In this document: positions 4,451-27,858 of the stretch, piece by piece
Position numbering within the stretch: the first letter of the stretch is position 1
Layout: each line of letters opens with the position of its first letter
From: Devosia sp. Root413D1
Lineage (GTDB): Bacteria; Pseudomonadota; Alphaproteobacteria; Rhizobiales; Devosiaceae
Direction: 5' to 3'
Length of the DNA: 64,000 nucleotides
Assembly: GCF_001425235.1 (NCBI RefSeq)
Contig: NZ_LMEA01000011.1
Location: 372,001-436,000 of the forward strand
Program-made: the position numbers and the translations under genes
The notes under the pieces: generated by a model
What the model was told of the DNA's origin: nothing
Database searches by the model: none
What the model saw: the letters and a program-made list of their open reading frames with translations, nothing else

Positions 4451-4558
4451 GCCCCCCACCCCTGTCCCCTCCCCGCAAGGGGGAGGGGAGACCAGAACAC
4501 CGACATCTCAGTTGAGGTCTCCCTCCCCCTTGCGGGGAGGGGACAGGGGTGGGGGTCC
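4451..4558. repeat. Palindromic element family A, copy 1
   Basis: A near-perfect inverted repeat: the left arm CCCCCCACCCCTGTCCCCTC is followed by CCCGCAAGGGGGAGGG, and the right arm is the inverse ending GGACAGGGGTGGGGGTCC. The flanks GGTGCGGGTTG and CCACCACCGG extend the pairing. It lies between the divergent oxidoreductase and cysteine hydrolase genes. Other copies are at 8406, 22671, 31803 and 48592. Confidence 0.9.
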
Positions 4559-8390: not shown

Positions 8391-8405
8391 GCGCGGTGGC
8401 TGCGG

Positions 8406-8512
8406 CCCCCCACCCCTGTCCCCTCCCCGCAAGGGGGAGGGAGACCCTCACACCGAATTCGCAGTTCATCGTCTCCCTCCCCCTTGCGGGGAGGGATCAA
8501 GGGTGGGGGTCC
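8406..8512. repeat. Palindromic element family A, copy 2
   Basis: Arms as in the other copies (CCCCCCACCCCTGTCCCCTC ... CAAGGGTGGGGGTCC) around a loop of about 30 bases. It occupies nearly all of the 148-base gap between the adaptor and pump genes of one efflux operon. In the transcript it would form a very stable hairpin and could alter the expression ratio of the two genes. Confidence 0.9.
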
Positions 8513-8538
8513 CCACGTTCTGAGTTCGAGGTACGCCC

Positions 8539-11698: not shown

Positions 11699-11911
11699 CC
11701 CACGCCCCCCTCTCTGGCGAAAACTAAGGACTTAGCTGCGCTAAGCCCAAGTTTTCGCTTTCTCCCCCGCCAAGGGGGAGAGTCTCGACTGATGCTCCGA
11801 TGCGAATGGTGGCCACCGATCATCTCCCCCCTTGCGGGGGAGAAAGCGACTTCTTGGGCTTAGCGTTTGCTAAGTCCTAGAGATCGCAAGAGGGGATATT
11901 GGGGGGCACGG
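11699..11911. repeat. Large imperfect inverted repeat (family C)
   Basis: About 210 bases. The left arm contains CTAAGGACTTAGCTGCGCTA, AGCCCAAGTTTTCGCTTTCT and CCCCCGCCAAGGGGGAGA; the right arm has the inverse order (TCTCCCCCCTTGCGGGGGAG, AAAGCGACTTCTTGGGCTTA, GCGTTTGCTAAGTCCTAG). It fills most of the 324-base gap between the pump gene and the convergent repeat-protein gene and codes for nothing visible. It looks like a non-autonomous palindromic element distinct from families A, B and D. Confidence 0.75.
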
Positions 11912-11997: not shown

Positions 11998-13923
11998 TCA
12001 GAACGCGTAGACTGTCAGCTGCCCGCCGCTGCGGCCGATAGCGTAGACGTCGTTCACGCCGGCGCCAGAGCGCTGCAGTTCGGCGACCAGCTTGCCGCTA
12101 CCGCCCAGTACGCGCTGCAGGATCTGCACCTTCTTGCTGGCTGTAACGGCGTTCACCACCTTGTCCTTGAGGTCAGCGCAGAGGCGGACCTTGACCACCT
12201 TGACGCCATTGACGTTGCTCAACAGGGCGCGGTTCAGCTGCATCTGCTTGACCTGCGCGATAACCTGCTTGGCGTCCTGCGGGTTGCAGGCACGGTTCAT
12301 GCCGAACCCACCGCCGCCACCTCCGGCCACGATCACGCGACCGCCAGGACCGCCGGGACCACCAGGGCCACCAGGACCACCAGGGCCGCCGGGGCCACCA
12401 GGACCGTTGCCGCCGCCCAGGTCGATGTTGATGTCACCGATATTGAGCAGGCTGCTGAGGTCGAGCAGGTTGCTCAGGTCGAGATCGGAGAGCAGGCCGC
12501 TGAGGTCCGTACCGCTCAGGATGTCGTTCAACTCGAGCGCATCCAGTAGATCGACATCGCCGACCAGGTCGGTCACACCACCCAGCCCGATATCACCGAC
12601 GAGATCGGTGACGCCGCCCAGTCCGATATCACCGACCAGATCGGTGACACCACCCAGTCCGATATCACCGACGAGGTCGGTGACGTCACCAAGGCCCAAC
12701 AGGCCAAGATCGCCCAGGTCGAGCAGGTTGTCGCCGAGCACGCCGCCGCCAAGCAGGTCGCCTCCGAGAATGTCACCACCAAGAACGTCTCCGGTGATAT
12801 CGCCGAGCCCCAGATCGGCGAGATTCAGGCCGTCGAGCAGCCCTTCACCGCCGCCGAGGCCGAGGTCGAGGTTGCCCAACAGGCCATCATCGCCGCCCAG
12901 ACCGAGGTTCAGGTCACCCAGCAGGCCATCGTCACCACCGAGGCCGAGGTCGAGATCGGCCAGCAGCCCATCGTCGCCGCCGAGACCGAGGTCGAGATCG
13001 CCTAAGAGGCCATCATCGCCGCCGAGGCCGAGGTCGAGATCGGCCAAGAGGCCATCATCGCCGCCGAGACCGAGGTCGAGATCGCCCAACAGGCCATCAT
13101 CGCCTCCGAGACCGAGATCGAGATCGGCCAGCAGCCCATCGTCGCCACCGAGACCGAGGTCGAGATCGCCCAGGAGGCCATCATCGCCGCCAAGCCCGAG
13201 ATCGAGATCGCCCAACAGGCCATCGTCCCCGCCTAGGCCGAGGTCGAGATCGCCAAGCAGGCCATCGTCACCGCCGAGACCGAGGTCGAGATCGCCCAGG
13301 AGGCCATCATCGCCGCCAAGCCCGAGATCGAGATCGCCCAACAGGCCATCGTCCCCGCCGAGGCCGAGGTCGAGATCGCCAAGCAGGCCATCGTCGCCGC
13401 CAAGATCGAGGTCGTCGATCAGCCCACCGACGAGGCCATCATCGCCACCGCCGAGCCCAAGATCGTCGAGCAGACCGTCGCCGCCGGTCAGGCCGAGGTC
13501 ACCGAGCACTCCTTCTTCGCCAGTGACGCCGAGGTCACCGAGCAGGCCGTTCTCGCCTGTCACGTCGCCGAGCAGACCATCGTCGCCTGTTACATCGCCG
13601 AGCAGGCCGTCATCACCGGTCAGGCCCCCGACCAGTCCCTCGTCGCCGGTGAGGTCGTCGAGTACGCCATCGTCCCCGGTTACGCCGAGGTTGCCGAGCA
13701 AGCCATCGCTACCGCCGTCGACATCGGCACCGAGGTCGACATTGACCAGCGAGCTGCCGTCGCCGCCGACGCTGACGATGCCGCCGACGTCGACCCCAGC
13801 CGAATCACCACCGTCGTCGCCTCCGAGAAGGCCACCAAGCAGCCCGGCGGCATTTGCTGGAACCAGACTGGTACTGGCCATCAGCACAATCGCCGCGAGT
13901 ACTGTAATCTTTTTGGATTGCAT
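11998..13923 (-). CDS. Secreted Asp/Gly/Leu tandem-repeat protein with conserved C-terminal domain
   Basis: 641 residues. A Sec signal peptide (KKITVLAAIVLMASTSLVPA, cut near ANA-AG) is followed by irregular TGDDGLLGDV-type units. Then come thirteen consecutive 14-residue units with consensus GLGGDDGLLGDLDL plus one decayed unit, and four 12-residue units GLGGVTDLVGDI. A (GPG)n linker leads to a C-terminal domain of about 100 residues with two Cys (ACNPQ and VRLCAD), ending NDVYAIGRSGGQLTVYAF. The same C-terminal domain occurs in the next gene upstream. The repeat is very acidic and recalls, but does not match, RTX calcium-binding nonapeptides. I do not recognise the protein; an extracellular matrix or surface role is a guess. 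The start has AGAGGAGA upstream; a longer frame from 13968 lacks the signal peptide position. Confidence 0.8.
   Translation of the reverse strand: MQSKKITVLAAIVLMASTSLVPANAAGLLGGLLGGDDGGDSAGVDVGGIVSVGGDGSSLVNVDLGADVDGGSDGLLGNLGVTGDDGVLDDLTGDEGLVGGLTGDDGLLGDVTGDDGLLGDVTGENGLLGDLGVTGEEGVLGDLGLTGGDGLLDDLGLGGGDDGLVGGLIDDLDLGGDDGLLGDLDLGLGGDDGLLGDLDLGLGGDDGLLGDLDLGLGGDDGLLGDLDLGLGGDDGLLGDLDLGLGGDDGLLGDLDLGLGGDDGLLADLDLGLGGDDGLLGDLDLGLGGDDGLLADLDLGLGGDDGLLGDLDLGLGGDDGLLADLDLGLGGDDGLLGDLNLGLGGDDGLLGNLDLGLGGGEGLLDGLNLADLGLGDITGDVLGGDILGGDLLGGGVLGDNLLDLGDLGLLGLGDVTDLVGDIGLGGVTDLVGDIGLGGVTDLVGDIGLGGVTDLVGDVDLLDALELNDILSGTDLSGLLSDLDLSNLLDLSSLLNIGDINIDLGGGNGPGGPGGPGGPGGPGGPGGPGGRVIVAGGGGGGFGMNRACNPQDAKQVIAQVKQMQLNRALLSNVNGVKVVKVRLCADLKDKVVNAVTASKKVQILQRVLGGSGKLVAELQRSGAGVNDVYAIGRSGGQLTVYAF
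12555..12692 (-). repeat. 36-bp coding tandem repeat, 4 units
   Basis: Four consecutive copies of a 36-base unit encoding GLGGVTDLVGDI inside the repeat-protein gene. The nucleotide units are nearly identical (GATATCACCGACxAGxTCGG on the plus strand), which implies recent duplication or homogenisation. Confidence 0.85.
12838..13405 (-). repeat. 42-bp coding tandem repeat, about 14 units
   Basis: The segment GCC-ATC-(G/A)TC recurs every 42 bases from about 12884 to 13388, giving 13 units of GLGGDDGLLGDLDL and one decayed unit (GLGGGEGLLDGLNL) at the downstream end. Alternate units differ by GLLG/GLLA, and some adjacent blocks are identical over two units, so unit number probably varies between strains by slippage or recombination. 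Confidence 0.9.
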
Positions 13924-13970
13924 CACGCTTCTCCTCTGCGAAACATGACGCGACAGTGCTCCCGTCAACC

Positions 13971-13986
13971 TGACAGGACGCTGTCA
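13971..13986. promoter_or_regulatory. 16-bp dyad upstream of the repeat-protein gene
   Basis: TGACAGGACGCTGTCA is a perfect 6+4+6 inverted repeat 48 bases upstream of the start at 13923. On the minus strand it overlaps a TTGACAG hexamer that could serve as a -35 element. The binding protein is unknown. Confidence 0.45.
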
Positions 13987-14082
13987 ACTAGTGCGACGTT
14001 GCTTTGGTGACAGAGCGCACAGTTATCGAAAACATTCCGAGATTCCATCAGGCTGCATCGATTAGCAGATAATACTTATATG

Positions 14083-14101
14083 CTACGTATCGAATACGTA
14101 G
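14083..14101. promoter_or_regulatory. CTACGTAT dyad between the two paralogous secreted genes
   Basis: CTACGTATCGAATACGTAG is an inverted repeat with 8-base arms and a 3-base centre, 160 bases upstream of the repeat-protein start. It is next to TATAAGTAT (minus strand). TCTACGTA and TATAAGTAT also occur together upstream of the paralogue at 14171-15004, suggesting shared control. Confidence 0.4.
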
Positions 14102-14113
14102 ACAGCGGAATCG

Positions 14114-14145
14114 GAAGGGGCGCGACCCGCAGGTCACGCCCCTTC
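14114..14145 (-). terminator. Hairpin terminator of the second secreted paralogue
   Basis: GAAGGGGCG pairs with CGCCCCTTC around a 14-base loop, 25 bases beyond the stop at 14171 on the minus strand. There is no strong T-run, so termination efficiency is uncertain. Confidence 0.5.
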
Positions 14146-14170
14146 GTTCCGTTCAACGATATGGCTGGTA

Positions 14171-15004
14171 TCAGTAAACGTAGACGACCAGTTGGCCACC
14201 CTTGCGCTGCACAGCGACGACGTCATTGGCGTCGTAGCGAGTCCGGCCGAGCGAGGCTGTGATCAGCGCATCGGACATCACCGCCCGGCGGAGCAGGTTG
14301 ATCTTCTGGCTCTTGGCGAGCAGCGCCGCGACCTGCTTCTTGGCGGCCGGGCAGAGCTTGATCGGCACCACCTGCACATTGGCGGCACGCATCCAGGCTT
14401 TGATCTCGGCGCCGCTGATCTTGCCGGCCGCCGCCACCTGCAGCAGCTGCTTGGTGTTGTTGACCGTGCAGTTGATCACGAAGGTGCCGCCGCCGCCGAG
14501 GCTGCCGACCAGCACGGGACGGCCACCCGGGTTGTTTGGGCCACCGGGATTATTCGGATTGTCGGGGTCGAGAATCCCCAGGTCGATATCGAGGTCGAGC
14601 CCGAGCCCGGCGAGATCGAGCGAAATCGATGTGCTCTTGAGCAGCCCGGTCGTCGACACGTTGGCGTTGACCAGGGGGTTGTTGCCCTTGCCGACAGCCG
14701 CATTCAGCAAGTTGTTGTTGCCGCCACCGACGTCGAGATTGACCAGCGCGTCATTGTCGTCGTCGTTGAGCGACAGCAGGCCACCGGCATTGGTGCCACC
14801 GCCCCCGCTCCCCCCGCCGCCGCCGCCACCGGCTATCCCGCCGACAGTTTCGGTCACGCCGCCCACGACGCCGCCGACCGTTTCGGTGACCCCGCCCACG
14901 ACGCCGCCAAGCGCGCCACCCAGATCCAGTGCACTGGCAGGGGCTGCACTCATACCCGCGACGATTGCGAACGTCGCCAGGGCCGCAAAAACGTTGCTTC
15001 TCAT
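14171..15004 (-). CDS. Secreted protein, paralogue of the 14-residue-repeat protein
   Basis: 277 residues. Signal peptide NVFAALATFAIVAGMSAAPA cut near ASA-LD. Then come two GGVVGGVTETVG units, a Gly/Ser tract, an Asp/Asn/Leu-rich middle (LNDDDNDALVNLDVGGGNN) and a Pro/Asn/Gly linker (NPNNPGGPNNPGG). The C-terminal domain has two Cys (VINCTVNN, IKLCPAAK) and ends NDVVAVQRKGGQLVVYVY. The domain and preceding linker match the adjacent 641-residue protein in order, although the central repeats differ. The ATG at 15004 has GGAGA at a suitable distance; the ATG two codons earlier is too close to it. Function unknown. Confidence 0.78.
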   Translation of the reverse strand: MRSNVFAALATFAIVAGMSAAPASALDLGGALGGVVGGVTETVGGVVGGVTETVGGIAGGGGGGGSGGGGTNAGGLLSLNDDDNDALVNLDVGGGNNNLLNAAVGKGNNPLVNANVSTTGLLKSTSISLDLAGLGLDLDIDLGILDPDNPNNPGGPNNPGGRPVLVGSLGGGGTFVINCTVNNTKQLLQVAAAGKISGAEIKAWMRAANVQVVPIKLCPAAKKQVAALLAKSQKINLLRRAVMSDALITASLGRTRYDANDVVAVQRKGGQLVVYVY

Positions 15005-15103
15005 GACCATTCTCCGCTACATCCGCCGCCCGTCGGCTGATGAATATGCAGGTATGAGGCCGTTGTAAAGCTTCGGAGCGAAAGCTGATCAACTTGTGAT
15101 TGG

Positions 15104-15132
15104 TTGGCCAATATATTCGGTATCTTGGCCAA
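15104..15132. promoter_or_regulatory. Twin TTGGCCAA palindromes 21 bp apart
   Basis: Two identical 8-base palindromes TTGGCCAA at 15104-15111 and 15125-15132 are separated by exactly two helical turns, about 100 bases upstream of the secreted-protein start at 15004. Their spacing suits cooperative binding by a dimeric regulator. Confidence 0.4.
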
Positions 15133-15170
15133 TTGCACAGATTACGCAGTGACACTTATACTGATAGTTT

Positions 15171-15198
15171 GCGTATACTTATACGCACTGCTACGTAG
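15171..15198. promoter_or_regulatory. GCGTATA/TATACGC and CTACGTAG dyads
   Basis: GCGTATACTTATACGC (7-base arms, 15171-15186) is followed by CTACGTAG (15191-15198). On the minus strand these read TCTACGTA ... TATAAGTAT, the same pair of words found upstream of the neighbouring repeat-protein gene. The region is distinctly A+T-rich. Confidence 0.4.
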
Positions 15199-15204
15199 AG
15201 TGCA

Positions 15205-16140
15205 GACAATTTTCTTGAAGCTTGAGTCCAATGCAAGATGTCACCGGAAGCTGCGCGCCGACCTACGCACCAGCGCGTAGGCCAGGAGACACCCGTTCCA
15301 CCCCCAGCGCTTGCCGCGAATATTGCAGCGGATGAAAACCGCAGGCGGAGCGGGCGTTTCGATGCTTGGAAGTGTTTTGGTAACCTCTTCGGCGGCGGCG
15401 TCGGAACTTGCCGGCTCAAGATGACAGGTTGCTGACAGCTTTTCGCAACTTATGAACAAGCACTGAGGTCGCCTCGATACCCGCCGCGCGACCCGCTCCG
15501 CCGCCGGTCCAGACCGCCCTCGCACGTCGTTTCGATTCAGGCGAAACGGCAGGTTGCGACATTGCTAGGTGGTGCTGCTTAGCACCATCACGATGAATAC
15601 GTAGATTCGCTACGCGATCGTCGATCCGACCAACAAAGAAGGCGCGAAGCCGAAGCTCCGCGCCCCACCGGCGTCAACCACGAGGGAGCGTCAGCCCTCG
15701 CAACATCGGCCGATATCTGTGCACCGGGAACTGCTCGCCGGCGGCTTGCTGGCTTAACGGCGAACGGGGCGGATGGTTGCGGCTAGCAATGACGATGCAC
15801 GCTGCGAAAATGCAAAGCCCCGCGCCGTTGCCGGTGCGGGGCCGAGGTGTTGGTGCAAACAACCTCTGCCGAAAGCGAACTTCCGGTGGCCGTCTTTTTA
15901 GCAGGACTACAAATCGCGGTCACGCCAGGGTGCATGACAACGCCTGTCGGGTGAAAGTCCCTCGCGCCCAACAGAGGCCGCCCAGTTCTGCGGCAACCAA
16001 AGCCGCTGCACAAATCTTAAGCAGACCCTAACGACGCTGCCCAGAGAACCGGCAGAGCAAGCCGACCGGTATGCATTCGTTCCATCGCACGGAACCGGCC
16101 GGCATCGAAAGACCCCAGCAGAGTCAGCGGTTTGGCGGCG
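15205..16140. other. About 0.9 kb without a convincing gene
   Basis: Open frames here are short and have no ribosome site, signal peptide or family resemblance. What is visible: a palindromic word GAATACGTAGATTC near 15597; a G+C hairpin GGCGCGAAGCC/GGAGCTTCGCGCC-like near 15640-15662; a second hairpin CCCCGCGCC/GGTGCGGGG near 15820-15842; and GGTGAAAGTCCC near 15950. The two hairpins look like terminators of lost or unannotated transcripts. A small RNA or gene remnant is possible but not shown. Confidence 0.5.
16007..16023. promoter_or_regulatory. Possible NtrC-type enhancer site
   Basis: TGCACAAATCTTAAGCA resembles the NtrC dyad TGCACCAN3TGGTGCA at both ends but is degenerate in the centre. 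It lies about 130-145 bases upstream of the sigma-54 promoter of urtA, a usual enhancer distance. Confidence 0.3.
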
Positions 16141-16151
16141 ATTTTCGGCGC

Positions 16152-16167
16152 TGGCACGGCGATTGCA
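16152..16167 (+). promoter_or_regulatory. Sigma-54 (RpoN) promoter of urtA
   Basis: TGGCACGGCGATTGCA matches the -24/-12 consensus TGGCACRN4TTGCW at every defined base. The start codon of urtA is 43 bases beyond it, which places the transcript start near 16178. RpoN dependence implies an enhancer-binding activator such as NtrC and fits nitrogen-limited expression of urea uptake and urease. Confidence 0.8.
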
Positions 16168-16209
16168 ACTTCCTCCCCGGTGCAAACAACCAAACTGTCG
16201 GAGGTAAGT

Positions 16210-17523
16210 ATGACAGGTATCAATCGCATGATGGCCGGGATCGGCCTGGGGGTCGCGATGACTGCCGGGGCGCTCGCGCCTCTTACTGCTTATGCGCAGG
16301 ACACCATCAAGGTGGGCGTGCTCCACTCGCTGTCAGGGACGATGGCGATCTCGGAGACCACCCTGAAGGATACCATGCTCTTCCTCATCGATGAGCAGAA
16401 CAAGAAGGGCGGCGTGCTGGGCAAGAAGCTCGAGGCCGTCGTGGTCGACCCTGCGTCCGACTGGCCGCTGTTCGCCGAGAAGGCCCGTGAGCTGATCGCC
16501 GTCAACGGGGTTGCCGCCGTGTTCGGCTGCTGGACCTCGTCATCGCGCAAATCGGTCCTGCCGGTGTTCAAGGAACTGAACTCGATCCTCTTCTACCCCG
16601 TGCAGTACGAGGGCGAAGAATCCGAAAAGAACGTGATCTACACCGGCGCCGCGCCAAACCAGCAGGCCATCCCCGCCGTCGACTACCTGATGAGCGAAGA
16701 AGGCGGCTCCGTGAAGCGCTGGGTGCTCGAAGCCACCGACTACGTCTACCCGCGCACCACCAACAAGATCCTCGAGCAGTACCTCAAGGACAAGGGCGTG
16801 GCGCCTGAAGACATCAAGATCAACTACACCCCGTTCGGCTTCTCCGACTGGCAGACTGAAGTCGCCGCCATCAAGGAGTTCGGCTCGGCCGGCAAGAAGA
16901 CCGCCGTGGTCTCGACCATCAACGGCGACGCCAACGTGCCGTTCTATAAGGAACTGGGCAACCAGGGCATCTCGGCCGAGGACATCCCGGTCGTCGCCTT
17001 CTCGGTCGGTGAAGAAGAGCTCGCCGGCATGGACACCTCGGCCCTCGTCGGTCACCTCGCCGCCTGGAACTACTTCCAGTCGGTGGAGAACGAGGCCAAT
17101 GCCGAGTTCATCAAGAACTGGCACGCCTATATCGGCAACGACAAGCGCACCACCAACGATCCGATGGAAGCGGCCTATCTCGGCTTCCAGCTCTGGGTGC
17201 AGGCGGTCGAAAAGGCCGGCACCACCGATACCGATGCGGTGCTCAAGGCCATTGTCGGGCTCGAAGTGCCGAACCTCACCGGTGGCACTGCCAAGGTTCT
17301 GCCCAACCACCACCTGACCAAGCCCGTGCTGATCGGTGAGATCCAGGCCGACGGCCAGTTCGAAACCGTGTGGCAGACCGAAGGCGACGTGCCGGGCGAT
17401 GCCTGGTCGGACGTCTTGCCGGAAGACAAGGGCATCGAAGCCGACTGGACCGATCCGCTGACCGGTTGCGGCCATTTCGACACCGCCACCAAGACCTGCG
17501 GCGCTGCTCCGGCAGCCATGTAA
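16210..17523 (+). CDS. urtA: Urea ABC transporter, substrate-binding protein
   Basis: 437 residues with signal peptide MAGIGLGVAMTAGALAPLTA cut near YAQ. The mature protein has the type I periplasmic-binding fold of the UrtA/AmiC group (IKVGVLHSLSGTMAISE, VFGCWTSSSRKSVLPVF, FYPVQYEGEESEKNVIYTGA, NDPMEAAYLGFQLW). It captures urea in the periplasm for UrtBC. GGAGG lies just before the ATG. It is first in a urt-ure run on the plus strand, downstream of an RpoN promoter. Confidence 0.96.
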   Translation: MTGINRMMAGIGLGVAMTAGALAPLTAYAQDTIKVGVLHSLSGTMAISETTLKDTMLFLIDEQNKKGGVLGKKLEAVVVDPASDWPLFAEKARELIAVNGVAAVFGCWTSSSRKSVLPVFKELNSILFYPVQYEGEESEKNVIYTGAAPNQQAIPAVDYLMSEEGGSVKRWVLEATDYVYPRTTNKILEQYLKDKGVAPEDIKINYTPFGFSDWQTEVAAIKEFGSAGKKTAVVSTINGDANVPFYKELGNQGISAEDIPVVAFSVGEEELAGMDTSALVGHLAAWNYFQSVENEANAEFIKNWHAYIGNDKRTTNDPMEAAYLGFQLWVQAVEKAGTTDTDAVLKAIVGLEVPNLTGGTAKVLPNHHLTKPVLIGEIQADGQFETVWQTEGDVPGDAWSDVLPEDKGIEADWTDPLTGCGHFDTATKTCGAAPAAM

Positions 17524-17606
17524 TCCGCGACAATCCGGCGACGGCGGCTCTCCGCCGTCGCCCCCACTCGATGACGCCCCAATTCTCCGGCGATAGAGCG
17601 ACCACG

Positions 17607-19220
17607 ATGGCCACCCGATTCCTGACTCTGATTGCCTTCCTGCTCGCTGTAGCTCTCGCCCCCCTGCCCGCCCTCGCCCAGGACGATTTCGCTGCTCAGC
17701 TCAACGGGCTGGGGCCGGGCAGTTTTGCCGACCGCACCAAGGCCATGGATGTGCTGGTCGCCACCGGCGACGAACGCGTACCGCCGGTGCTGCAGGCGCT
17801 GAGCGACGGCAACCTCTACATTCGCGAATCCGACGGCAAGGTGGTGATCGCCACCAAGGCCGCCGGCGGCCTGGCGGTGACCGACCCGGTCGATGGTGCC
17901 GATCTCGGCGTCCTGCCGAGCGGCGAGCTCGAAAAAATCAAGACCAACAATGGCCTGCGCGGCAAGATCCGCACCGCCATCGGCAAGCTGACGCTCTTGA
18001 GCCCCGACCAGCCGACCCGGCTGTCGGCGGCGCAAAGCGTGCTGAAGAACGCCGATCCGGCAATGCTCGAGCTGCTCGACCAGGCGATATCAGCTGAGGC
18101 GGACGCCGGCATCAAGAGCACCATGCAGATGGCGCGCGCCGTGATCGTCTTGAAGACCGATGCCTCGCTGGAAGACAAGCGCGCCGCCGTCGATCTGGTC
18201 GTGGCGCAGAACAACCGGGCCGCGCAGACCGTGCTGCGCAACACGCTCGACACCGCGCCCGACGAGCTGAAGCCGACGATCCAGACCGGCATCGACTCGA
18301 TCGGCCGCACCCTCGCCGTTTGGGACGTCGGCCAGAACCTGCTCTACGGTCTCTCGCTGAGTTCGGTGCTGCTGCTCGCCGCCATCGGCCTCGCCATCAC
18401 CTTCGGCGTGATGGGCGTCATCAACATGGCGCATGGCGAAATGGTGATGCTGGGAGCCTACACCACCTACGTCACACAGCTGGTGATCCAGTCGGTGGCG
18501 CCGGGGCTGATGGAGTATTCGCTCGCCTTCGCGGTCCCCGCTGCCTTCCTGTTCACCGCGCTGGTCGGCGTCGGCATCGAGCGGGGCATCATTCGTTGGC
18601 TCTACGGCCGGCCGCTCGAAACCCTGCTCGCCACCTGGGGTCTGTCCCTGGTGCTGCAGCAGCTGGTCCGCACCATTTTCGGCCCCACCAACAAGCTGGT
18701 GCAGCCGCCGCAATGGATGAGCGGCACGTTCGAGTTGTGGAACCTGAGCTTCACCTGGAACCGGCTCTGGATCATCGTCTTCGCCATCGCCGTGTTCATC
18801 GCGCTGCAGATCATCCTCAACCGCACGCCGCTGGGCCTGCAGATGCGGGCAGTGACGCAGAACCGCCGCATGGCCTCGGCCATGGGCATCCGCACGCCGT
18901 TCGTCGACGCCATGACCTTCGGGCTGGGCTCCGGCATTGCCGGCATGGCCGGTGTGGCGCTGAGCCAGATCGACAACGTCTCGCCCAATCTCGGCCAGGG
19001 CTACATCATCGACAGCTTCATGGTGGTGGTGTTCGGTGGTGTGGGGAACCTGTGGGGCACGCTGATCGGCGCGCTATCGCTCGGCGTCGCCAACAAGTTT
19101 CTCGAGCCCTATGCGGGGGCGGTGCTGGCCAAGATCGCCATCCTGATCCTCATCATCCTGTTCATCCAGCGGCGACCAAGGGGGCTGTTCGCACTCAAGG
19201 GCCGGGCGGTGGAGTCGTGA
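17607..19220 (+). CDS. urtB: Urea ABC transporter permease UrtB
   Basis: 537 residues. A signal peptide (RFLTLIAFLLAVALAPLPAL, cut near AQ-DD) and a periplasmic helical extension of about 220 residues are typical of UrtB and absent from the related LivH. The C-terminal ~300 residues are the permease: AIGLAITFGVMGVINMAHGE, MRAVTQNRRMASAMGI and VVVFGGVGNLWGTLIGALSL. With UrtC it forms the membrane channel. An ATG at 17571 is an alternative start, but the signal peptide favours 17607. A 184-base gap containing a long palindrome separates it from urtC. Confidence 0.94.
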   Translation: MATRFLTLIAFLLAVALAPLPALAQDDFAAQLNGLGPGSFADRTKAMDVLVATGDERVPPVLQALSDGNLYIRESDGKVVIATKAAGGLAVTDPVDGADLGVLPSGELEKIKTNNGLRGKIRTAIGKLTLLSPDQPTRLSAAQSVLKNADPAMLELLDQAISAEADAGIKSTMQMARAVIVLKTDASLEDKRAAVDLVVAQNNRAAQTVLRNTLDTAPDELKPTIQTGIDSIGRTLAVWDVGQNLLYGLSLSSVLLLAAIGLAITFGVMGVINMAHGEMVMLGAYTTYVTQLVIQSVAPGLMEYSLAFAVPAAFLFTALVGVGIERGIIRWLYGRPLETLLATWGLSLVLQQLVRTIFGPTNKLVQPPQWMSGTFELWNLSFTWNRLWIIVFAIAVFIALQIILNRTPLGLQMRAVTQNRRMASAMGIRTPFVDAMTFGLGSGIAGMAGVALSQIDNVSPNLGQGYIIDSFMVVVFGGVGNLWGTLIGALSLGVANKFLEPYAGAVLAKIAILILIILFIQRRPRGLFALKGRAVES

Positions 19221-19234
19221 GTTTCGTGCACAAG

Positions 19235-19381
19235 GCCCCCTCACCCGGCGCTGCGCGCCGACCTCTCCCCCTCGGGGCGCTACCGCGTCCCCCAGGGAGA
19301 GGTGGCGTGGAGGCGAGATCGCGCCACAGCGCCACCTCTCCCTCTGGGGGAGAGGTCGGCCGAAGGCCGGGTGAGGGGGCC
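19235..19381. repeat. Palindromic element family B inside the urt operon
   Basis: The left arm CCCCCTCACCCGGCGCTGCG / CGCCGACCTCTCCCCCTC pairs with the right arm GGGGGAGAGGTCGGCCGAAG / GCCGGGTGAGGGGGCC, around a loop of about 60 bases with smaller stems. It fills the space between urtB and urtC and could work as a transcript hairpin that lowers expression of downstream genes. Confidence 0.85.
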
Positions 19382-19404
19382 TCTCTTCTGACGGGTGCCG
19401 ACCA

Positions 19405-20580
19405 ATGCTGACCCAAATGCTGTTCCGCGCCCTCGACAAGAAGGCCATGTGGCTGGTCGCGGCGCTGGTGTTCATCGCCATCGCCATTCCGGTCGCCAAC
19501 CTGGTGATCCCCGAGGGCAACCCGCTGCACCTGCCCAACTATATGGTGCCGCTGCTCGGCAAATATCTGAACTATGCGCTGCTGGCGCTCGCCCTCGATC
19601 TGGTCTGGGGCTATTGCGGCATCCTCTCGCTCGGTCACGCCGCGTTCTTCGCGCTCGGCGCCTATGCCATGGGCATGTACCTGATGCGCCAGATCGGGGC
19701 GCGCGGCGTCTACGCCAATCCGGTGCTGCCCGACTTCATGGTGTTCCTCAACTACAAGGACCTGCCCTGGTTCTGGCACGGGTTCGACCTGTGGTGGTTC
19801 GCCTTCCTGATGGTGCTGTTCGTGCCGGGCCTCCTGGCCTTCGCCTTCGGCTGGTTCGCCTTCCGCAGCCGCGTCACCGGCGTCTACCTCTCGATCATCA
19901 CCCAGGCGATGACCTATGCCCTGCTGCTCGCCTTCTTCCGCAACGATCTCGGGCTCGGCGGCAATAACGGGCTCACCGACTTCAAGGATATCCTCGGCTT
20001 CAACGTGCAGGCAGCGACCACCCGCGCCGGGCTGTTCGCCGCCTCGGCACTGGCTTTGGCGCTGGCGGTGATCATCTGCTCGGCCATCGTCAATTCGAAG
20101 CTCGGCAAAGTCATGGTCGCGGTGCGCGACGCCGAAAGCCGCACCCGCTTCCTCGGCTGGCGCCCGGAGAACGTCAAACTCTTCGCCTTCGTCGTGTCAG
20201 CGGTGCTGGCCGGCATAGCCGGCGCGCTCTACACGCCGCAGGTCGGCATCATCAACCCGGGCGAGTTCGACCCTGCCAACTCGATCGAAGCGGTGATCTG
20301 GGTCGCCGTCGGCGGCCGCGGCACGCTGATCGGCCCGATCATCGGCGCGGTGCTGGTCAATGCCGGCAAGTCGGTGTTCACCGGCGCTTTCCCCGATTTC
20401 TGGCTCTATTGCCTCGGAGGCCTCTTCATCTTCGTCACCCTGTTCATGCCCAAGGGCATTGTCGGGCTGTTCCAGAAACTCAAGCCTCGCAAGGGCAAGG
20501 AAGCGAGCTCGGCCGCCGAAGCCGGCGAGGATCCATCCACCCTGCCGCAGCCCAAGCCCGTGCCGGAGCCCGCCGAATGA
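19405..20580 (+). CDS. urtC: Urea ABC transporter permease UrtC
   Basis: 391 residues, a LivM-type inner-membrane permease with about ten hydrophobic segments. Family features include LALDLVWGYCGILSLGHAAF, GRNNGLTDF-like GGNNGLTDFKDILGF, VAVRDAESRTRFLGW and IWVAVGGRGTLIGPIIGAVL. The C-terminus is a Lys/Pro-rich cytoplasmic tail. The stop overlaps the urtD start (ATGA). Confidence 0.95.
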   Translation: MLTQMLFRALDKKAMWLVAALVFIAIAIPVANLVIPEGNPLHLPNYMVPLLGKYLNYALLALALDLVWGYCGILSLGHAAFFALGAYAMGMYLMRQIGARGVYANPVLPDFMVFLNYKDLPWFWHGFDLWWFAFLMVLFVPGLLAFAFGWFAFRSRVTGVYLSIITQAMTYALLLAFFRNDLGLGGNNGLTDFKDILGFNVQAATTRAGLFAASALALALAVIICSAIVNSKLGKVMVAVRDAESRTRFLGWRPENVKLFAFVVSAVLAGIAGALYTPQVGIINPGEFDPANSIEAVIWVAVGGRGTLIGPIIGAVLVNAGKSVFTGAFPDFWLYCLGGLFIFVTLFMPKGIVGLFQKLKPRKGKEASSAAEAGEDPSTLPQPKPVPEPAE

Positions 20581-21326
20581 CCGACAAATCCGGCACCATG
20601 CTCTATCTCAACGGCGTCTCCGTCTCCTTCGACGGCTTCAAGGCGCTGAACCATCTGTCGATCATCGTCCACCCGGGCGAGATGCTGGCGATCATCGGCC
20701 CGAACGGCGCCGGCAAGACCACCATGATGGACATCATCACCGGCAAGACTCGCCCCGATGACGGCGAAGTCTACTTCGACGGCCGCACCGACCTCACCAA
20801 GCTCGACGAAGCGCAGATCGCCAATCTCGGCATCGGCCGCAAGTTCCAGAAGCCGACAGTGTTCGAGAGCCACACCATCTGGGATAACCTGGTGCTGGCG
20901 CTGAAGCGGCCGCGCAGCGTGCTGGCCGCCCTGCTCTATTCCGAGAGCGCTGAGGACAAGGCGCGCATCGAGGAAATCCTCGACACCGTCCGCCTCACTG
21001 CACGCAAGGACGAACTCGCCGCCGACCTTAGCCACGGCCAGAAGCAGTGGCTGGAGATCGGCATGCTGCTGGCGCAGGACCCGAAGCTGCTGCTGGTCGA
21101 CGAGCCGGTCGCCGGCATGACCGATGCCGAAACGGTCGAGACGGCAAAGCTGCTCAAACAGATCGCCAAGACCCGCTCGGTGGTCGTCGTCGAACACGAC
21201 ATGAGCTTCGTGCGCGAACTCGGCACCCGCGTCACCTGCCTCGCCGAGGGCTCGGTATTGGCCGAGGGCTCGCTCGACCAGGTGAGCGCCAACCCGATCG
21301 TCATCGAGCGGTATCTCGGGCGATGA
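20577..21326 (+). CDS. urtD: Urea ABC transporter ATPase UrtD
   Basis: 249 residues, LivG-type ATPase. Walker A is GPNGAGKTT, the signature is LSHGQKQWLEIG, and Walker B is LLLVDEPVAGM, followed by VVVVEHDMSFV with the switch His. It powers urea import with UrtE. The start overlaps the urtC stop by four bases. Confidence 0.95.
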   Translation: MTDKSGTMLYLNGVSVSFDGFKALNHLSIIVHPGEMLAIIGPNGAGKTTMMDIITGKTRPDDGEVYFDGRTDLTKLDEAQIANLGIGRKFQKPTVFESHTIWDNLVLALKRPRSVLAALLYSESAEDKARIEEILDTVRLTARKDELAADLSHGQKQWLEIGMLLAQDPKLLLVDEPVAGMTDAETVETAKLLKQIAKTRSVVVVEHDMSFVRELGTRVTCLAEGSVLAEGSLDQVSANPIVIERYLGR

Positions 21327-21406
21327 TGATCAGTTGCAGTAACCTCCGTACCTCTTCAATATCCCCGGCGATCACGCGACCGAAGGCGCGGCTTGGGGAT
21401 AGTGGA

Positions 21407-21937
21407 ATGCATATTCTGGCAATTGTCGTCGGCATCATTGCTGCCGCGGGTGTGTGGTATTGGCGCGCCAAGGCGGCCAAGGAGGTGGTCGACGACGTCG
21501 GAAGCGTGGTCGGCCGGGTCCAGGGCCGCATCCGGATGAACAATTTCAGGAAGAAGGCGGAGGGCTCGGCGCTCGCCTCGATCGAAGACCCGGCGCTTGC
21601 TGCGGCGGTGTTCCTCCACGCGCTCGCCAACGAGAAGCGCGACGCGCTGCATCTTGCCGAACCGAGGATCCGTGAAGAGCTCGGCCGGATCGTCGCGGAT
21701 ACCGACCTCGACGAGGTCGTCTCCTACGCGCAATGGGCGGCTCGCGATGTCGCCGATGCACGCGATGTGGTGCGCCGCTTCAAGCCGCTGTGGCGGCAGA
21801 AGCTGACGCGCGAGGAGCGCGCCGATCTCATCGTTATGGCCGAGACCATCGCCGGTCTCGGCGAAGGCGACGACCACAACCAGAAGCTGACTCTCGTGAC
21901 GCTGCGTACAGCTTTGGGCCCGGAGCAGAACCGATGA
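21407..21937 (+). CDS. TerB-like membrane-anchored protein within the urt operon
   Basis: 176 residues. An N-terminal hydrophobic anchor (HILAIVVGIIAAAGVWYW) precedes an all-helical domain with a TerB-like pattern: DPALAAAVFLHALANEKRD in the first half and REERADLIVMAETIAGLGEG followed by LVTLRTALG in the second, each an acidic helix-loop-helix. It lies between the two transporter ATPase genes and overlaps the urtE start by four bases, so it is co-translated with the transporter. A frame from 21323 (ATGA overlap with urtD) would add 28 residues. The TerB assignment is my inference; the role is unknown. Confidence 0.7.
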   Translation: MHILAIVVGIIAAAGVWYWRAKAAKEVVDDVGSVVGRVQGRIRMNNFRKKAEGSALASIEDPALAAAVFLHALANEKRDALHLAEPRIREELGRIVADTDLDEVVSYAQWAARDVADARDVVRRFKPLWRQKLTREERADLIVMAETIAGLGEGDDHNQKLTLVTLRTALGPEQNR

Positions 21938-22638
21938 CCACCGCCCTTTCCATCCGTGACATCGGCCTCCACTACGGCGCGGCGCAAGCCTTGCGTGGCA
22001 TCAGCATCGAGGCGAAGCCCGGACGGATCACCGCTGTGCTCGGCCGCAACGGCGTCGGCAAATCCTCGACGCTGCGCGCCGTCACCGGCATCAACAACAT
22101 TTCCTCGGGCGAGATCGTCTTCAACGACGAGGTGCTGAAGAAGGCCCCGCCCTATAAGCGGGCCAGGCTCGGCATCGGCTACGTGCCGCAGGGGCGCGAG
22201 GTTTTCCCGCTGCTGACGGTCAAGGAGAACCTCGAAACCGGCTACGCACCGCTGAAGGCGGCCGAACGCAATGTGCCGGATTACATCTACGAGCTGTTCC
22301 CGATCCTCAAATCGATGCTTGGCCGCCGCGGCGGCGACCTCTCAGGCGGCCAGCAGCAGCAGCTCGCCATCGGCCGTGCCCTGGTGACGCGGCCCAAGGT
22401 GCTGGTGCTCGACGAGCCGACCGAGGGCATCCAGCCCTCGATCATCAAGGATATCGGTCGGGCGCTGCAGTTCCTGCGCGACCAGAAGGGCATGACCATC
22501 CTCCTGGTCGAGCAGTACCTGGACTTCTGCCGCGAGATCGCCGACGACATCTACATCATGGATCGCGGTGAAATCATGCATTCGGGCCCCGCTACCGACC
22601 TCGACCTCCCCGAGGTGCGCCGGCATCTTATGGTGTAG
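21934..22638 (+). CDS. urtE: Urea ABC transporter ATPase UrtE
   Basis: 234 residues, LivF-type ATPase. Walker A is GRNGVGKSS, the signature is LSGGQQQQLAIGRAL, and Walker B is VLVLDEPTEGIQPSI with the switch His replaced by Q in LLVEQYLDF as usual in LivF/UrtE. GYVPQGREVFP is a typical Q-loop segment. It pairs with UrtD. Its start overlaps the stop of the TerB-like gene. Confidence 0.95.
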   Translation: MTTALSIRDIGLHYGAAQALRGISIEAKPGRITAVLGRNGVGKSSTLRAVTGINNISSGEIVFNDEVLKKAPPYKRARLGIGYVPQGREVFPLLTVKENLETGYAPLKAAERNVPDYIYELFPILKSMLGRRGGDLSGGQQQQLAIGRALVTRPKVLVLDEPTEGIQPSIIKDIGRALQFLRDQKGMTILLVEQYLDFCREIADDIYIMDRGEIMHSGPATDLDLPEVRRHLMV

Positions 22639-22670
22639 GGAACGCGTGTCCTCACTTCCGGTGCGAGCTG

Positions 22671-22780
22671 CCCCCCACCCCTGTCCCCTCCCCCCAAACA
22701 GGGGGAGGGAGACGCCGGCACGGGCGCTGGTGTTTTGGTCTCCTGCCCCCCTTGGGGGGAGAGGACAGGGGTGGGGGGCC
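22671..22780. repeat. Palindromic element family A, copy 3
   Basis: CCCCCCACCCCTGTCCCCTC and the inverse GAGGACAGGGGTGGGGGGCC flank a central stem and loop. Outer flanks GGTGCGAGCTG and CGGCCACCGG extend the pairing. It occupies most of the 168 bases between urtE and ureD, separating the transporter genes from the urease genes. Confidence 0.9.
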
Positions 22781-22806
22781 GCGGCCACCGGCTCCCGAGG
22801 CGAGCC

Positions 22807-23622
22807 ATGAACGCCGTCTCCCCGACCATCCGCCACCAGCGCGCCCGCGGCGTCGGCCGCATCGCCACCCAGGTGCTCGACGGCCGCACCCGCCTGACCA
22901 CTCTGTACCAGGAGGGCTGCGCCAAGATCCGGCTGCCGCATACGCATGACCCGAGCCTGCAAGCCGTACTGATCAACACCGCCGGCGGGCTGACCGGCGG
23001 CGATGACGTTGCCTGGGAAGCCAAAGCCGCGCCCGGCGCCAGGATGGTGCTCACCACCCAGGCCTGCGAACGGGTCTATCGCTCGCTCGGCGACGATGCC
23101 TCGGTCAGCACCCGGCTCGAGGTCGGCGCCGGGGCGCATCTCGACTGGCTGCCGCAGGAGACCATCCTCTACGAAGGCGGCCGGCTCAGCCGCAGCCTCG
23201 AGGTCGACCTCGCTCCCGACGCCAGTTTCTTCGCCATCGAGGCGATCATCCTCGGCCGCGAGGCCATGGGCGAAGCCGCTCGTGGCGCCCGGCTCACCGA
23301 TACCTGGCGCATTCGCCGCGGCGGCCGGCTGCTCCATGCCGAAGCGACGCGGCTGAGCACCGATCCGCTCGAGCGCGACGGTCTGTCGCTGCTGGCCGGC
23401 GCCGGCGCTTTCGCCACCCTGCTCTATGTCGGCGCCGATGCCGAGCGAAAGCTCGATCCGGTCCGCCCGCTCATCACCGGCGAGGCGGCCGCCAGCGTCA
23501 TCGGCGAGCGTCTCGTCGTCCGCGCCATGGCGCCCTCAGGGCTTGCGCTGCGCCGGATCATCACCCCAATAATCGCAAAGCTCTCCGGCGCCGGCACCCT
23601 GCCCCGCCTCTGGCATTTGTGA
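22807..23622 (+). CDS. ureD: Urease accessory protein UreD
   Basis: 271 residues, the normal UreD length. Family motifs are LINTAGGLTGGDD, LTTQACERVYRS, LDWLPQETILYEGGRL and AIEAIILGREAMGE. UreD is the platform that binds urease apoprotein and receives the UreF-UreG complex for nickel insertion. The ATG at 22807 follows CGAGCC; the reading frame upstream passes through the palindrome and is not coding. Confidence 0.93.
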   Translation: MNAVSPTIRHQRARGVGRIATQVLDGRTRLTTLYQEGCAKIRLPHTHDPSLQAVLINTAGGLTGGDDVAWEAKAAPGARMVLTTQACERVYRSLGDDASVSTRLEVGAGAHLDWLPQETILYEGGRLSRSLEVDLAPDASFFAIEAIILGREAMGEAARGARLTDTWRIRRGGRLLHAEATRLSTDPLERDGLSLLAGAGAFATLLYVGADAERKLDPVRPLITGEAAASVIGERLVVRAMAPSGLALRRIITPIIAKLSGAGTLPRLWHL

Positions 23623-23655
23623 GCATGAATCGCATGGCTTCCTTCACCACCGATG

Positions 23656-23797
23656 TCATCCCGGCGCAGGCCGGGATCCATCTCTCCGCCGGCGCTGGCG
23701 GCGCCATGGATTCCCGCCTTCGCGGGAATGACACGGGGGTTGTGGCGCGAGCCTGTGCTAGCACCACAGCCGTCATCCCCGCGAAGCGGGGATCCAG
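23656..23797. repeat. GTCATCCC-type palindromes (family D), copy 2
   Basis: GATGTCATCCCGGCGCAGGC pairs with the inverse ending CGCGGGAATGACAC around a short loop with its own stem (GCCGGCGCTGGCGGCGCC). A separate half-element, CGTCATCCCCGCGAAGCGGG, follows at 23771-23797. All lie between ureD and ureA. Confidence 0.8.
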
Positions 23798-23832
23798 TGC
23801 CCCGCGCACGACACTACCGTAGGAACCTCCGC

Positions 23833-24135
<303 letters not shown>

Positions 24136-24140
24136 GCGAC

Positions 24141-24452
24141 ATGGCTCTCATCCCAGGCGAAATCACCACCGTCCCCGGCGACATCGAGCTTAATGTCGGC
24201 GCGCCGCAAATCACCCTCGAGGTCGCCAACACCGGCGATCGGCCGATCCAGGTCGGCTCGCATTACCACTTCTACGAGACCAATGCGGGCCTGAGCTTCG
24301 ACCGCGAAAAGGCCCGCGGCATGCGGCTCGATATCGCCGCCGGCACCGCCGTGCGCTTCGAGCCGGGACAGGCCCGCGAGGTGCGGCTGGTGCCGCTCTC
24401 GGGCAACCGCATTGTCTACGGCTTCCAGCAGAAGGTGATGGGGAAGCTCTAG
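24141..24452 (+). CDS. ureB: Urease subunit beta
   Basis: 103 residues. [54 protein letters not shown] and [19 protein letters not shown] are the classical UreB sequence. The usual ureC neighbour does not follow directly; it begins 1.7 kb later after three other genes, two of them on the opposite strand. Confidence 0.97.
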
Positions 24453-24556
24453 ATCCTTTTCACCGTTCAAGTGGAACGGCGAAAAGGATCTAAGTCATTG
24501 TTTTTGTTGCGCTTTCGAACCGGAAAAGTCTGCAACTTTTCCTGAAAGCACTCTAA
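24441..24556. repeat. Rhizobiales-type intergenic mosaic element after ureB
   Basis: The hairpin AGATCCTTTTCACCGTTC / GAACGGCGAAAAGGATCT (24451-24491) abuts the ureB stop. It is followed by TTGCGCTTTCGAACCGGAAA, AGTCTGCAACTTTTCCTGAA and AGCACTCTA, which resembles in order the intergenic palindromic units with GGAAAA...CACTTTTCCTG...CTCTA seen in rhizobia and Brucella. The hairpin may also end the urt-ureB transcript. Confidence 0.6.
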
Positions 24557-24575
24557 CGCGGCGCATCCAGACACG

Positions 24576-24606
24576 AAAAGGCCGGGCATCGAGCCCGGCC
24601 CTTCGT
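24576..24606 (-). terminator. Terminator of the 104-residue secreted gene
   Basis: GGCCGGGC pairs with GCCCGGCC across ATCGA (24580-24600). Read on the minus strand it is followed by TTTTCGTG, just beyond the stop at 24623. It would also block readthrough from ureB on the other strand. Confidence 0.75.
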
Positions 24607-24622
24607 GTGGAACAGGGAGTGG

Positions 24623-24937
24623 TTAGCCCTGGACCAGGATGGTCACGTCGGTCGCATCGGTACCGGTGATGCCCACGACGTCGTCAAGCGTCGCGCCGAA
24701 GCTTTCGAGCTGAGCGAGCAGCGCCGGGCTGCCCTGGATACGGGCCTTCAGCGAGTCGAGATCGACCTCTTGATAGCCCGGGCTCAGAGGATTGAGCTCG
24801 GCAGCGGTCACGGCCTTGAAGCTGACCGTCGTCGCCGAGGTCAACGCGTCCATTGCGCTGCCTTCGGCCGCCATGGCCAGGCCGGCGGTCGAAAGTGTAA
24901 GGGCGGCGGCGACTGCAATAGCCTTGAGATTCAACAT
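24623..24937 (-). CDS. Small secreted protein, possible member of the four-protein family
   Basis: 104 residues. Signal peptide LKAIAVAAALTLSTAGLAMA cut near AAE. The mature 80 residues contain VSFKAVTAAELNPLSPG, DSLKARIQGSPALLAQLESF and DDVVGITGTDATDVTILVQG. The spacing and pattern of the last 65 residues resemble the C-terminal domain of the two secreted proteins at 11998-15004 (NDVVAVQRKGGQLVVYVY), but without the two Cys. GGAG lies nine bases before the ATG. It runs opposite to the urease genes. Function unknown. Confidence 0.75.
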   Translation of the reverse strand: MLNLKAIAVAAALTLSTAGLAMAAEGSAMDALTSATTVSFKAVTAAELNPLSPGYQEVDLDSLKARIQGSPALLAQLESFGATLDDVVGITGTDATDVTILVQG

Positions 24938-25071
24938 CTTTTATCTCCATTGGTCATAAAACCACACTGGGGATACGCATGAAGTGGGCAGAGGTTTCCC
25001 CATGCCCGTTCACACTATTTTGCGCGCCCTGCACGGGAACCCGCCCTCAGGGATCGTGCGAAACCTTACGA

Positions 25072-25455
25072 TCAGAGGTCGTCGGCGTAGAGGACCCCGC
25101 CGCCGTCGCCCGCGAGATCGATCGAAACGATCTGGCCGAGGCTGACGCCGGAATTACGGATGGCGCTCATTGCCAGCGGGTTGATCACGAGGTTCCCCTG
25201 CAGGTAGCCCACGTCGCGCTGCTTGATCTCGAGCGACCGGGCCAAGAGGTCCGCATTCATCTCCGCCCCGGCGAGGCTGGAGAGACGCACCACGCGCAGA
25301 CCCGCGGCGCTGTCGGCCCGGCCGGCATCGTGCAGGAATTCGGTTCCGCCAATCCCCGAGATGATCTGGACGATATCCATGTTCTGCGCGTGGACGAGCT
25401 GGGGCGCGGCCACAGCCAAGGTGACGGCAAGCGCGGCGACGAATCGGGATTTCAT
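25072..25455 (-). CDS. Small secreted protein, possible member of the four-protein family
   Basis: 127 residues. Signal peptide SRFVAALAVTLAVAAPQLVH cut near AQ-NM. The mature part has LRVVRLSSLAG, IKQRDVGYLQGNLVINPLA and a C-terminus GQIVSIDLAGDGGGVLYADD. From LRVVRL onward it aligns in length and pattern with the last 67 residues of the repeat protein (VKVVKVRL ... NDVYAIGRSGGQLTVYAF). GGAGG precedes the ATG at 25455; the longer frame to 25719 has no support. It is opposite in direction to the urease genes. Function unknown. Confidence 0.75.
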   Translation of the reverse strand: MKSRFVAALAVTLAVAAPQLVHAQNMDIVQIISGIGGTEFLHDAGRADSAAGLRVVRLSSLAGAEMNADLLARSLEIKQRDVGYLQGNLVINPLAMSAIRNSGVSLGQIVSIDLAGDGGGVLYADDL

Positions 25456-25585
25456 GTGAGCCTCCAAACAGGTAGCGCCAATAGAACAGCGGGCTGTGGC
25501 AAAATCCGGACAGAGCGCCACAGAGCTTTGGCAATCGCCAGAGATTTCGGCTAGGGATGCGCCGTTTTCAATGGGCAGGACGGCG

Positions 25586-26148: not shown

Positions 26149-27858
<1,710 letters not shown>

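What the first reader, a model, noticed from the sequence alone, without database searches (positions are those of the whole stretch)
11998..25455. Possible new family of four secreted proteins bracketing the urea cluster
Genes at 11998-13923, 14171-15004, 24623-24937 and 25072-25455, all on the minus strand, encode Sec-secreted proteins. The first two clearly share a C-terminal domain (two Cys; ends NDVYAIGRSGGQLTVYAF and NDVVAVQRKGGQLVVYVY). The two small ones consist almost only of a similar segment (ends DDVVGITGTDATDVTILVQG and GQIVSIDLAGDGGGVLYADD), about 65-70 residues from a VxVV-like strand to the end, but lack the Cys pair. Two lie before urtA and two between ureB and ureC. I know of no described domain with this pattern. 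The first pair is strong from sequence; inclusion of the small two is inference.
Basis: partly seen in the sequence, partly recalled or inferred. Interest (0 to 1): 0.78.

Follow-up and report, generated by a model that had tools for sequence, protein, structure and literature searches.

The report
Secreted protein domain beside urease genes
Four exported proteins that sit around and inside a soil bacterium's urea-uptake and urease genes share one undescribed protein domain, which recurs at the same spot in some related bacteria and may be an unrecognised part of how they live on urea.

Summary
The window lies in a Devosia-like genome (Devosiaceae, Hyphomicrobiales). The four minus-strand ORFs have Sec-type signal peptides. 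The two long proteins share a two-Cys C-terminal domain; profile comparison joins both small ones to it in register (hhalign E 3e-7, 5e-10, 2e-5). HMM iteration from each subfamily converges on the same 166-168 ORFs, with no decoy hit. No accepted Pfam, NCBIfam or PDB match was found. It is not a family of four: this genome has 13 members; 50 of 297 order genomes have some, and in a class-wide draw none of the other 288 genomes does.

New here: linkage to urea genes is conserved. In Devosiaceae, 40 of 92 long-type hits lie within 16 kb of urtA (0.7 expected). In the order, 23 of 84 members lie within 5 kb of ureC (0.2 expected), 21 of them just upstream of ureC, in four families. Every one of these is on the opposite strand. 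Ancestral gene order explains part of it, and most ureC-bearing genomes lack a linked member. Function is inferred: a non-catalytic exported binding module, some copies tied to urea use.

The parts
11998..13923 (-). P0001, 641 aa: signal peptide, Gly/Asp/Leu repeats, PGG linker, C-terminal domain
   Evidence: Translation; 42-bp tandem array 12836-13450, 14.5 copies, and PGG-coding repeats 12339-12406
12001..12315 (-). P0001 C-terminal domain with two Cys
   Evidence: z 17.9 with the P0002 domain; iterated HMM; dN/dS 0.14 in two comparisons
14171..15004 (-). P0002, 277 aa: signal peptide, Gly-rich segment, C-terminal domain
   Evidence: Translation; long-type relatives in 67 of 121 family genomes at E <= 0.01
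14174..14503 (-). P0002 C-terminal domain with two Cys; modelled
   Evidence: AlphaFold2 pLDDT 82.3, pTM 0.74 for 14174-14488; dN/dS 0.03 and 0.05
24623..24937 (-). P0003, 104 aa: signal peptide plus the domain, no Cys, in the ureB-ureC gap
   Evidence: Translation; family profile vs long type E 2.9e-7; dN/dS 0.15 and 0.17
25072..25455 (-). P0004, 127 aa: signal peptide plus the domain with an N-terminal helix, no Cys, in the ureB-ureC gap
   Evidence: Translation; family profile vs P0003 family E 5.0e-10 and vs long type E 2.0e-5; dN/dS 0.09 and 0.27
16210..17523 (+). urtA, periplasmic urea-binding protein, divergent from P0002 (context)
   Evidence: Peripla_BP_5 E 4.2e-158; named urtA by recognition; start assigned here
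16152..16167 (+). Exact sigma-54-like promoter match upstream of urtA (context)
   Evidence: Only exact match in the window, 0.07 expected in shuffles
24141..24452 (+). ureB, low side of the gap (context)
   Evidence: Urease_beta E 1.6e-45
26149..27858 (+). ureC, high side of the gap (context)
   Evidence: Named by recognition; as a query it found ureC-like genes at E <= 1e-200 in 200 of 297 order genomes

Best explanation
The four proteins are members of one undescribed superfamily, seen here only in the order Hyphomicrobiales: exported soluble proteins ending in a small alpha/beta domain (strand, helices, strand, strand), preceded by a variable segment (Gly/Asp repeats, PGG linker, EF-hands, or almost nothing). 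Shown here: homology, signal-peptide-like N-termini, C-terminal position of the domain, order-level restriction in the genomes sampled, and conserved linkage to urt/ure genes on the opposite strand. Inferred: the domain is a non-catalytic binding or assembly module in the periplasm or on the cell surface that docks on a common envelope partner while the N-terminal segment varies the job. The copies beside and inside the urea cluster are envelope accessories used when the cell lives on urea, for example together with the periplasmic urea-binding protein UrtA.
For: Profile-profile matches in register; three seeds converge on 166-168 of 5603 ORFs; no hit at E <= 1e-3 in reversed or shuffled ORFs; domain within 20 residues of the C-terminus in 161 of 168 ORFs and a crude signal-peptide test met by 156 of 168; only a Cys, an Arg and a Val invariant in 28 long-type rows and nothing invariant in 43 members, so no sign of a catalytic site; an own-genome member joins EF-hands to the domain; 40 of 92 long-type hits within 16 kb of urtA and 23 of 84 members within 5 kb of ureC, all on the opposite strand; gap members fall in several subclades, at least 5 label changes forced by well-supported branches.
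Against: No expression, localisation or phenotype data. Linkage is a minority trait: ureC is in 200 of 297 order genomes, but only 17 genomes show a member within 5 kb (a lower bound), and 9 of this genome's 13 members lie elsewhere. 27 of the 60 Devosiaceae genomes with both a long-type hit and urtA show no linkage, among them all 9 of genus code g16, some on other contigs. A molybdopterin oxidoreductase is also kept in 12 of 24 urt-linked loci, so ancestral gene order explains part of the long-type linkage. The sigma-54-like site is at urtA, not at the four genes. The P0004 model is unreliable.
Confidence: 0.5

Rival explanations
1. Hitchhiking: the domain family is real, but its place at the urea cluster is inherited gene order with no functional tie to urea; the proteins do an unrelated envelope job.
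For: A molybdopterin oxidoreductase (window 2218-4506) keeps the same neighbourhood in 12 of 24 urt-linked loci outside the genus; 9 of 13 own-genome members lie elsewhere; most ureC-bearing order genomes show no linked member.
Against: The RND pump next to P0001 is in none of the same 24 loci; members occupy the ureB-ureC gap in four families and fall in several subclades; the strand is always opposite in the two counted sets.
Confidence: 0.35
2. The domain is a very diverged member of a known small exported domain (BON-like or another alpha/beta module) that sequence and fold searches here missed, so only the neighbourhood is new.
For: The helix-strand-strand end resembles the first half of a BON domain (recalled resemblance, no call); no library of predicted cellular structures was on hand.
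Against: BON is not among the 23 Pfam families listed for 43 members at E <= 1; no PDB fold match at E <= 0.001, best 0.63.
Confidence: 0.2
3. The long proteins are acidic surface proteins that bind calcium or steer mineral formation where urease raises the pH; the C-terminal domain is their anchor.
For: Asp- and Gly-rich 14-residue repeats in P0001; an own-genome member with EF-hands; neighbouring urease genes.
Against: The small members have no such segment; P0001 has no Pfam match, calcium motifs included; no measurement.
Confidence: 0.05
4. The small and long proteins are unrelated; the likeness of their C-termini is convergence of small secreted alpha/beta proteins.
For: Weak direct pairwise scores; an earlier profile set gave only E 0.023 for long vs P0004 type; the P0004 model is unreliable.
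Against: intermediate members with a Cys pair and small-type tails.
Confidence: 0.03

Closest known systems
Accessory genes of urease clusters (ureDEFG, ureI/ureJ)
   Same: Sit within or beside ureABC; Devosia urease operons are described as conserved (PMC6981132, passages seen).
   Different: Those are maturation factors or membrane transporters (general knowledge). These are predicted to be exported, lie on the opposite strand and match no urease family.
BON domain (Pfam PF04972, number recalled)
   Same: Small exported domain of similar size with a helix followed by two strands (recalled resemblance).
   Different: No Pfam match at E <= 1 in 43 members; the model has strand-helices-strand-strand order.
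RTX and other Gly/Asp repeat proteins
   Same: Gly- and Asp-rich tandem repeats in P0001.
   Different: Signal peptide instead of a C-terminal type I secretion signal (recalled definition); no Pfam match.

Membership tests
The new superfamily (criterion used here) | Match to the C-terminal domain profile iterated from any of three seeds | tested here: met
   All four window proteins at E 4e-13 or better from each seed (after iteration, so they are in the training set). Before iteration the P0004-type profile alone finds P0002 at E 5e-4 and P0003 at E 1e-3 among 5603 ORFs, while the long-type profile does not find the two small window proteins at E 0.01.
The new superfamily (criterion used here) | Exported protein with the domain at the C-terminus | tested here: met
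   Signal peptides by eye; domain within 20 residues of the end in 161 of 168 ORFs, duplicates from overlapping loci included.
The new superfamily (criterion used here) | Common fold | tested here: inconclusive
   P0002 domain pLDDT 82.3; P0004 pLDDT 49.4, same element order apart from one extra short helix.
BON domain | Match to the Pfam model | tested here: not met
   Not among the families listed for the four proteins at E <= 10 or for 43 members at E <= 1; HMMER filters drop most weak matches.
RTX repeat proteins | Pfam calcium-binding repeat match | tested here: not met
   0 Pfam families for P0001 at E <= 10.
RTX repeat proteins | Type I secretion without a Sec signal peptide (recalled) | tested here: not met
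   Sec-type signal peptide by eye.
Mycobacterial hemophore-related proteins (TIGR04529) | Match to the NCBIfam model | tested here: inconclusive
   2 of 43 members, best E 9.4e-4, not corrected for 43 scans; none of the four window proteins.
TAL effector repeats (considered because of hits) | Tandem repeats that each match along their length | tested here: not met
   The PDB profile hits (best E 1.3e-16) sum many 20-residue matches; no stretch passes on its own. Pfam TAL_effector: 1 of 43 members, E 8e-4.
Urease accessory gene | Needed for urease maturation or nickel/urea transport | not testable with these tools
   Only gene position is known.

The most novel reading that the evidence does not exclude
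An unrecognised class of exported accessory proteins belongs to the urea-nitrogen system of Hyphomicrobiales: different subfamilies of one new domain came to sit, more than once, in the ureB-ureC gap and beside urtA, on the opposite strand, because they are needed when the cell scavenges urea.
Probability: 0.3. Interest if true: 0.75.

Novelty: new variant of a known kind. Interest (0 to 1): 0.57.

Why it matters
It defines a domain that the libraries tested here lack, with 13 copies in one genome and members in 11 families of a soil- and plant-associated order, and turns a set of hypothetical proteins into a testable group. If the link to urea holds, one of the best-studied bacterial enzyme clusters has exported partners not yet described, which would bear on nitrogen turnover in soil.

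Tried and rejected
Sequence-only pairing of the four was too weak for the small ones, so profiles were used. TAL-repeat hits in the PDB profile search were rejected as sums of short matches. Hemophore-related and other weak family hits were rejected as scattered and uncorrected. Viral origin: one scan of viral contigs with the P0002 domain gave 22 pattern matches and no relative. Spread beyond the order: in a class-wide draw of 289 genomes only the window's own genome had members; the search scores at most 17 candidates a genome, so weak members can be missed. Plasmids: one hit in Sinorhizobium sojae (29.9% identity) for an f23 member and one in Pelagibacterium (46.5%) for a Devosiaceae member; within 8 kb, tblastn found no urea marker in the first and the annotation shows none in the second. 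The P0004 model was not searched for folds because it is unreliable. The second look by VIA-align was not available. Literature: eight searches, seen as listings, showed no paper on this family; one Devosia genome paper, PMC6981132, was searched by term (passages only) and has no occurrence of 'secreted'. The library lacks most subscription papers, so this is not proof of absence from print.

Limits and dropped rows. Hits at E <= 0.01 include weak ones; the three downstream links are weak. The ureC list was cut by the tool, so one search covers 41 of the 50 member genomes and is a lower bound. Chance expectations assume uniform placement in genomes of 4.2 Mb and 5 Mb and ignore relatedness, so they overstate significance. 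In a wider 40-kb radius 29 of 30 links are on the opposite strand. The ORFs come from loci already chosen by homology searches, with duplicates. The 24 urt-linked loci are 24 of the 26 linked genomes outside the genus (G093 and G095 were left out). Its filter (40% identity over 40% of the query) excludes the long proteins themselves. Position labels of the tree were assigned by script, and 60 of 107 inner branches are unresolved.
Full report
Setting. The window is contig C11:372001-436000 of a 5.85 Mb, 14-contig genome. The six relatives found in named genome contigs are all Devosia, among them Devosia sp. 66-14 and Devosia insulae DS-56, so the genome is Devosia-like, family Devosiaceae. The region reads RND pump (8539-11673, +; ACR_tran), P0001 and P0002 (-), urtABCDE, ureD, ureA, ureB (+), P0003 and P0004 (-), a small + ORF, ureC (+) (urtA-E and ureC named by recognition).

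Check of the observation. The four ORFs and their tails are as stated. Local alignment against 2000 shuffles gives z = 17.9 for the two long C-termini, but only 4.9 (P0001 domain with P0003), 2.8 (each long domain with P0004), 3.2 (P0003 with P0004) and 0.2 (P0002 domain with P0003). Relatives were therefore collected from 121 genomes of the family. At E <= 0.01 the long type was found in 67, the P0003 type in 38 and the P0004 type in 22; many of the last two are weak.

Homology. Profiles of the three types (28, 25 and 15 rows) align in register to the C-terminus: E 2.9e-7, 5.0e-10 and 2.0e-5, probability 93, 97 and 77%. A smaller earlier set gave similar results for two pairs, but only E 0.023 for long versus P0004 type; the gain came with a broader P0004 set. 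Before iteration the P0004-type profile finds P0002 (E 5e-4) and P0003 (E 1e-3) among 5603 ORFs, while the long-type profile misses both small window proteins at E 0.01. Iterated hmmsearch from each seed converged on 168, 166 and 167 ORFs, 166 of them shared, with all four window proteins at E 4e-13 or better. Reversed and shuffled copies of the same ORFs gave no hit at E <= 1e-3. Intermediate proteins carry a Cys pair like the long type with a small-type tail (L065; L136 and L137). All four genes are under purifying selection (dN/dS 0.03-0.27).

Anatomy. In 161 of 168 ORFs the domain ends within 20 residues of the C-terminus; a crude signal-peptide test was met by 156 of 168, and some of the 12 failures are truncated ORFs. 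What precedes the domain varies: 14-residue Gly/Asp/Leu repeats (42-bp array, 14.5 copies), PGG linkers, EF-hands in an own-genome paralogue, or little else. The P0002 domain was modelled with pLDDT 82.3 and pTM 0.74 from 12 rows: helices 9-21 and 26-32, strand 37-42, helices 47-58, 61-72 and 74-81, strands 90-96 and 99-104. The P0004 model from 4 rows is unreliable (pLDDT 49.4) but has the same element order from the first strand on, apart from one extra short helix. Foldseek found no PDB match at E <= 0.001 (best 0.63) and none among viral models (best 1.1). Among 28 long-type rows only a Cys, an Arg and a Val are invariant, and nothing is invariant over 43 members, so a catalytic site is unlikely (inference).

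Extent. The long-type profile finds members in 9 of 297 order genomes, all in Devosiaceae. With the 43-row profile 50 of 297 have members at E <= 0.001, in 21 of 123 genera and 11 family codes (f1, f5, f13, f15, f20, f22, f23, f28, f34, f35, f50); this genome has 13. In a class-wide draw of 289 genomes only this genome had any. Plasmid records name Sinorhizobium sojae and Pelagibacterium. Pfam and NCBIfam have no accepted match.

Linkage to the urea genes. In Devosiaceae 60 genomes have both a long-type hit and urtA; in 33 of them a long-type gene lies within 16 kb of urtA. That is 40 of 92 hits against 0.7 expected; all 40 are on the opposite strand and 37 are upstream of urtA. In the order, 41 member genomes have a listed ureC; 23 of their 84 members, in 17 genomes of families f1, f15, f23 and f28, lie within 5 kb of ureC against 0.2 expected, all on the opposite strand, and 21 of the 23 lie within 1.6 kb upstream of ureC. 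Fetched flanks show a member between ureB and ureC in f15 (one genome), f23 (one), f28 (two) and several Devosiaceae genera; for the remaining f23 and f28 genomes I rely on distance to ureC. On a tree of 110 rows the 24 gap rows need 12 label changes, at least 5 forced by well-supported branches, against a shuffled mean of 22.1 with 0 of 500 as low. So several subfamilies occupy the slot; the tree is poorly resolved.

Evidence against a functional link. Of 24 urt-linked loci outside the genus, 12 also keep a molybdopterin oxidoreductase (window 2218-4506; 13 if a shorter match is counted), so an ancestral neighbourhood accounts for part of the long-type linkage; the RND pump is in none of the 24. 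27 of the 60 Devosiaceae genomes show no linkage, some perhaps because of broken contigs. ureC occurs in 200 of 297 order genomes, so a linked member is a minority trait, and 9 of this genome's 13 members are elsewhere. The only exact sigma-54-like site in the window is upstream of urtA, not of the four genes.

Mechanism. Shown: shared domain, signal-like N-termini, modular N-terminal segments, selection, linkage. Inferred: an exported, non-catalytic docking domain with a common envelope partner; the copies at the urea cluster are envelope accessories of urea use, perhaps with UrtA. I give the whole statement 0.5, the homology alone about 0.97 and the urea role about 0.3.

Comparison with what is known. 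No family tested fits (membership table). A paper on 27 Devosia genomes reports conserved urease operons and does not use the word 'secreted' (PMC6981132, passages). Eight full-text searches showed no description of this family in their listings. I rate it a new variant of a known kind: a new domain family and a new sort of neighbour in a well-known cluster, with no new biochemical principle shown.

Noticed in passing
window 25571-25984 (+): A 138-residue ORF between P0004 and ureC, divergent from P0004, with no Pfam match.
   Followed up: no
window 26302-26590 (-): Rfam 5_ureB_sRNA (RF02514) matches antisense to the start of ureC at 100 bits against a gathering score of 40. It may only reflect the conserved coding sequence.
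   Followed up: no
window 8401-8519, 11747-11859, 22667-22783, 23638-23803: Below-threshold Rfam matches to several microRNA families, some on both strands, suggest dispersed palindromic repeats in intergenic DNA.
   Followed up: no
own genome C8:242211-244217 (L137 and L282, L283, L285, L286): Four superfamily members in tandem within about 2 kb; the four carry Cys pairs.
   Followed up: partly
own genome C11:946106-946360 (L278): A member with EF-hands (EF-hand_5, E 6.1e-12) in front of the domain, which suggests a calcium-binding exported protein.
   Followed up: partly
window 16152-16167 (+): Exact sigma-54-like promoter upstream of urtA, which suggests nitrogen control of the urea transporter.
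   Followed up: no
window 2218-4506 (-): A molybdopterin oxidoreductase gene stays near the urt genes in 12 of 24 loci of other Devosiaceae genera.
   Followed up: partly
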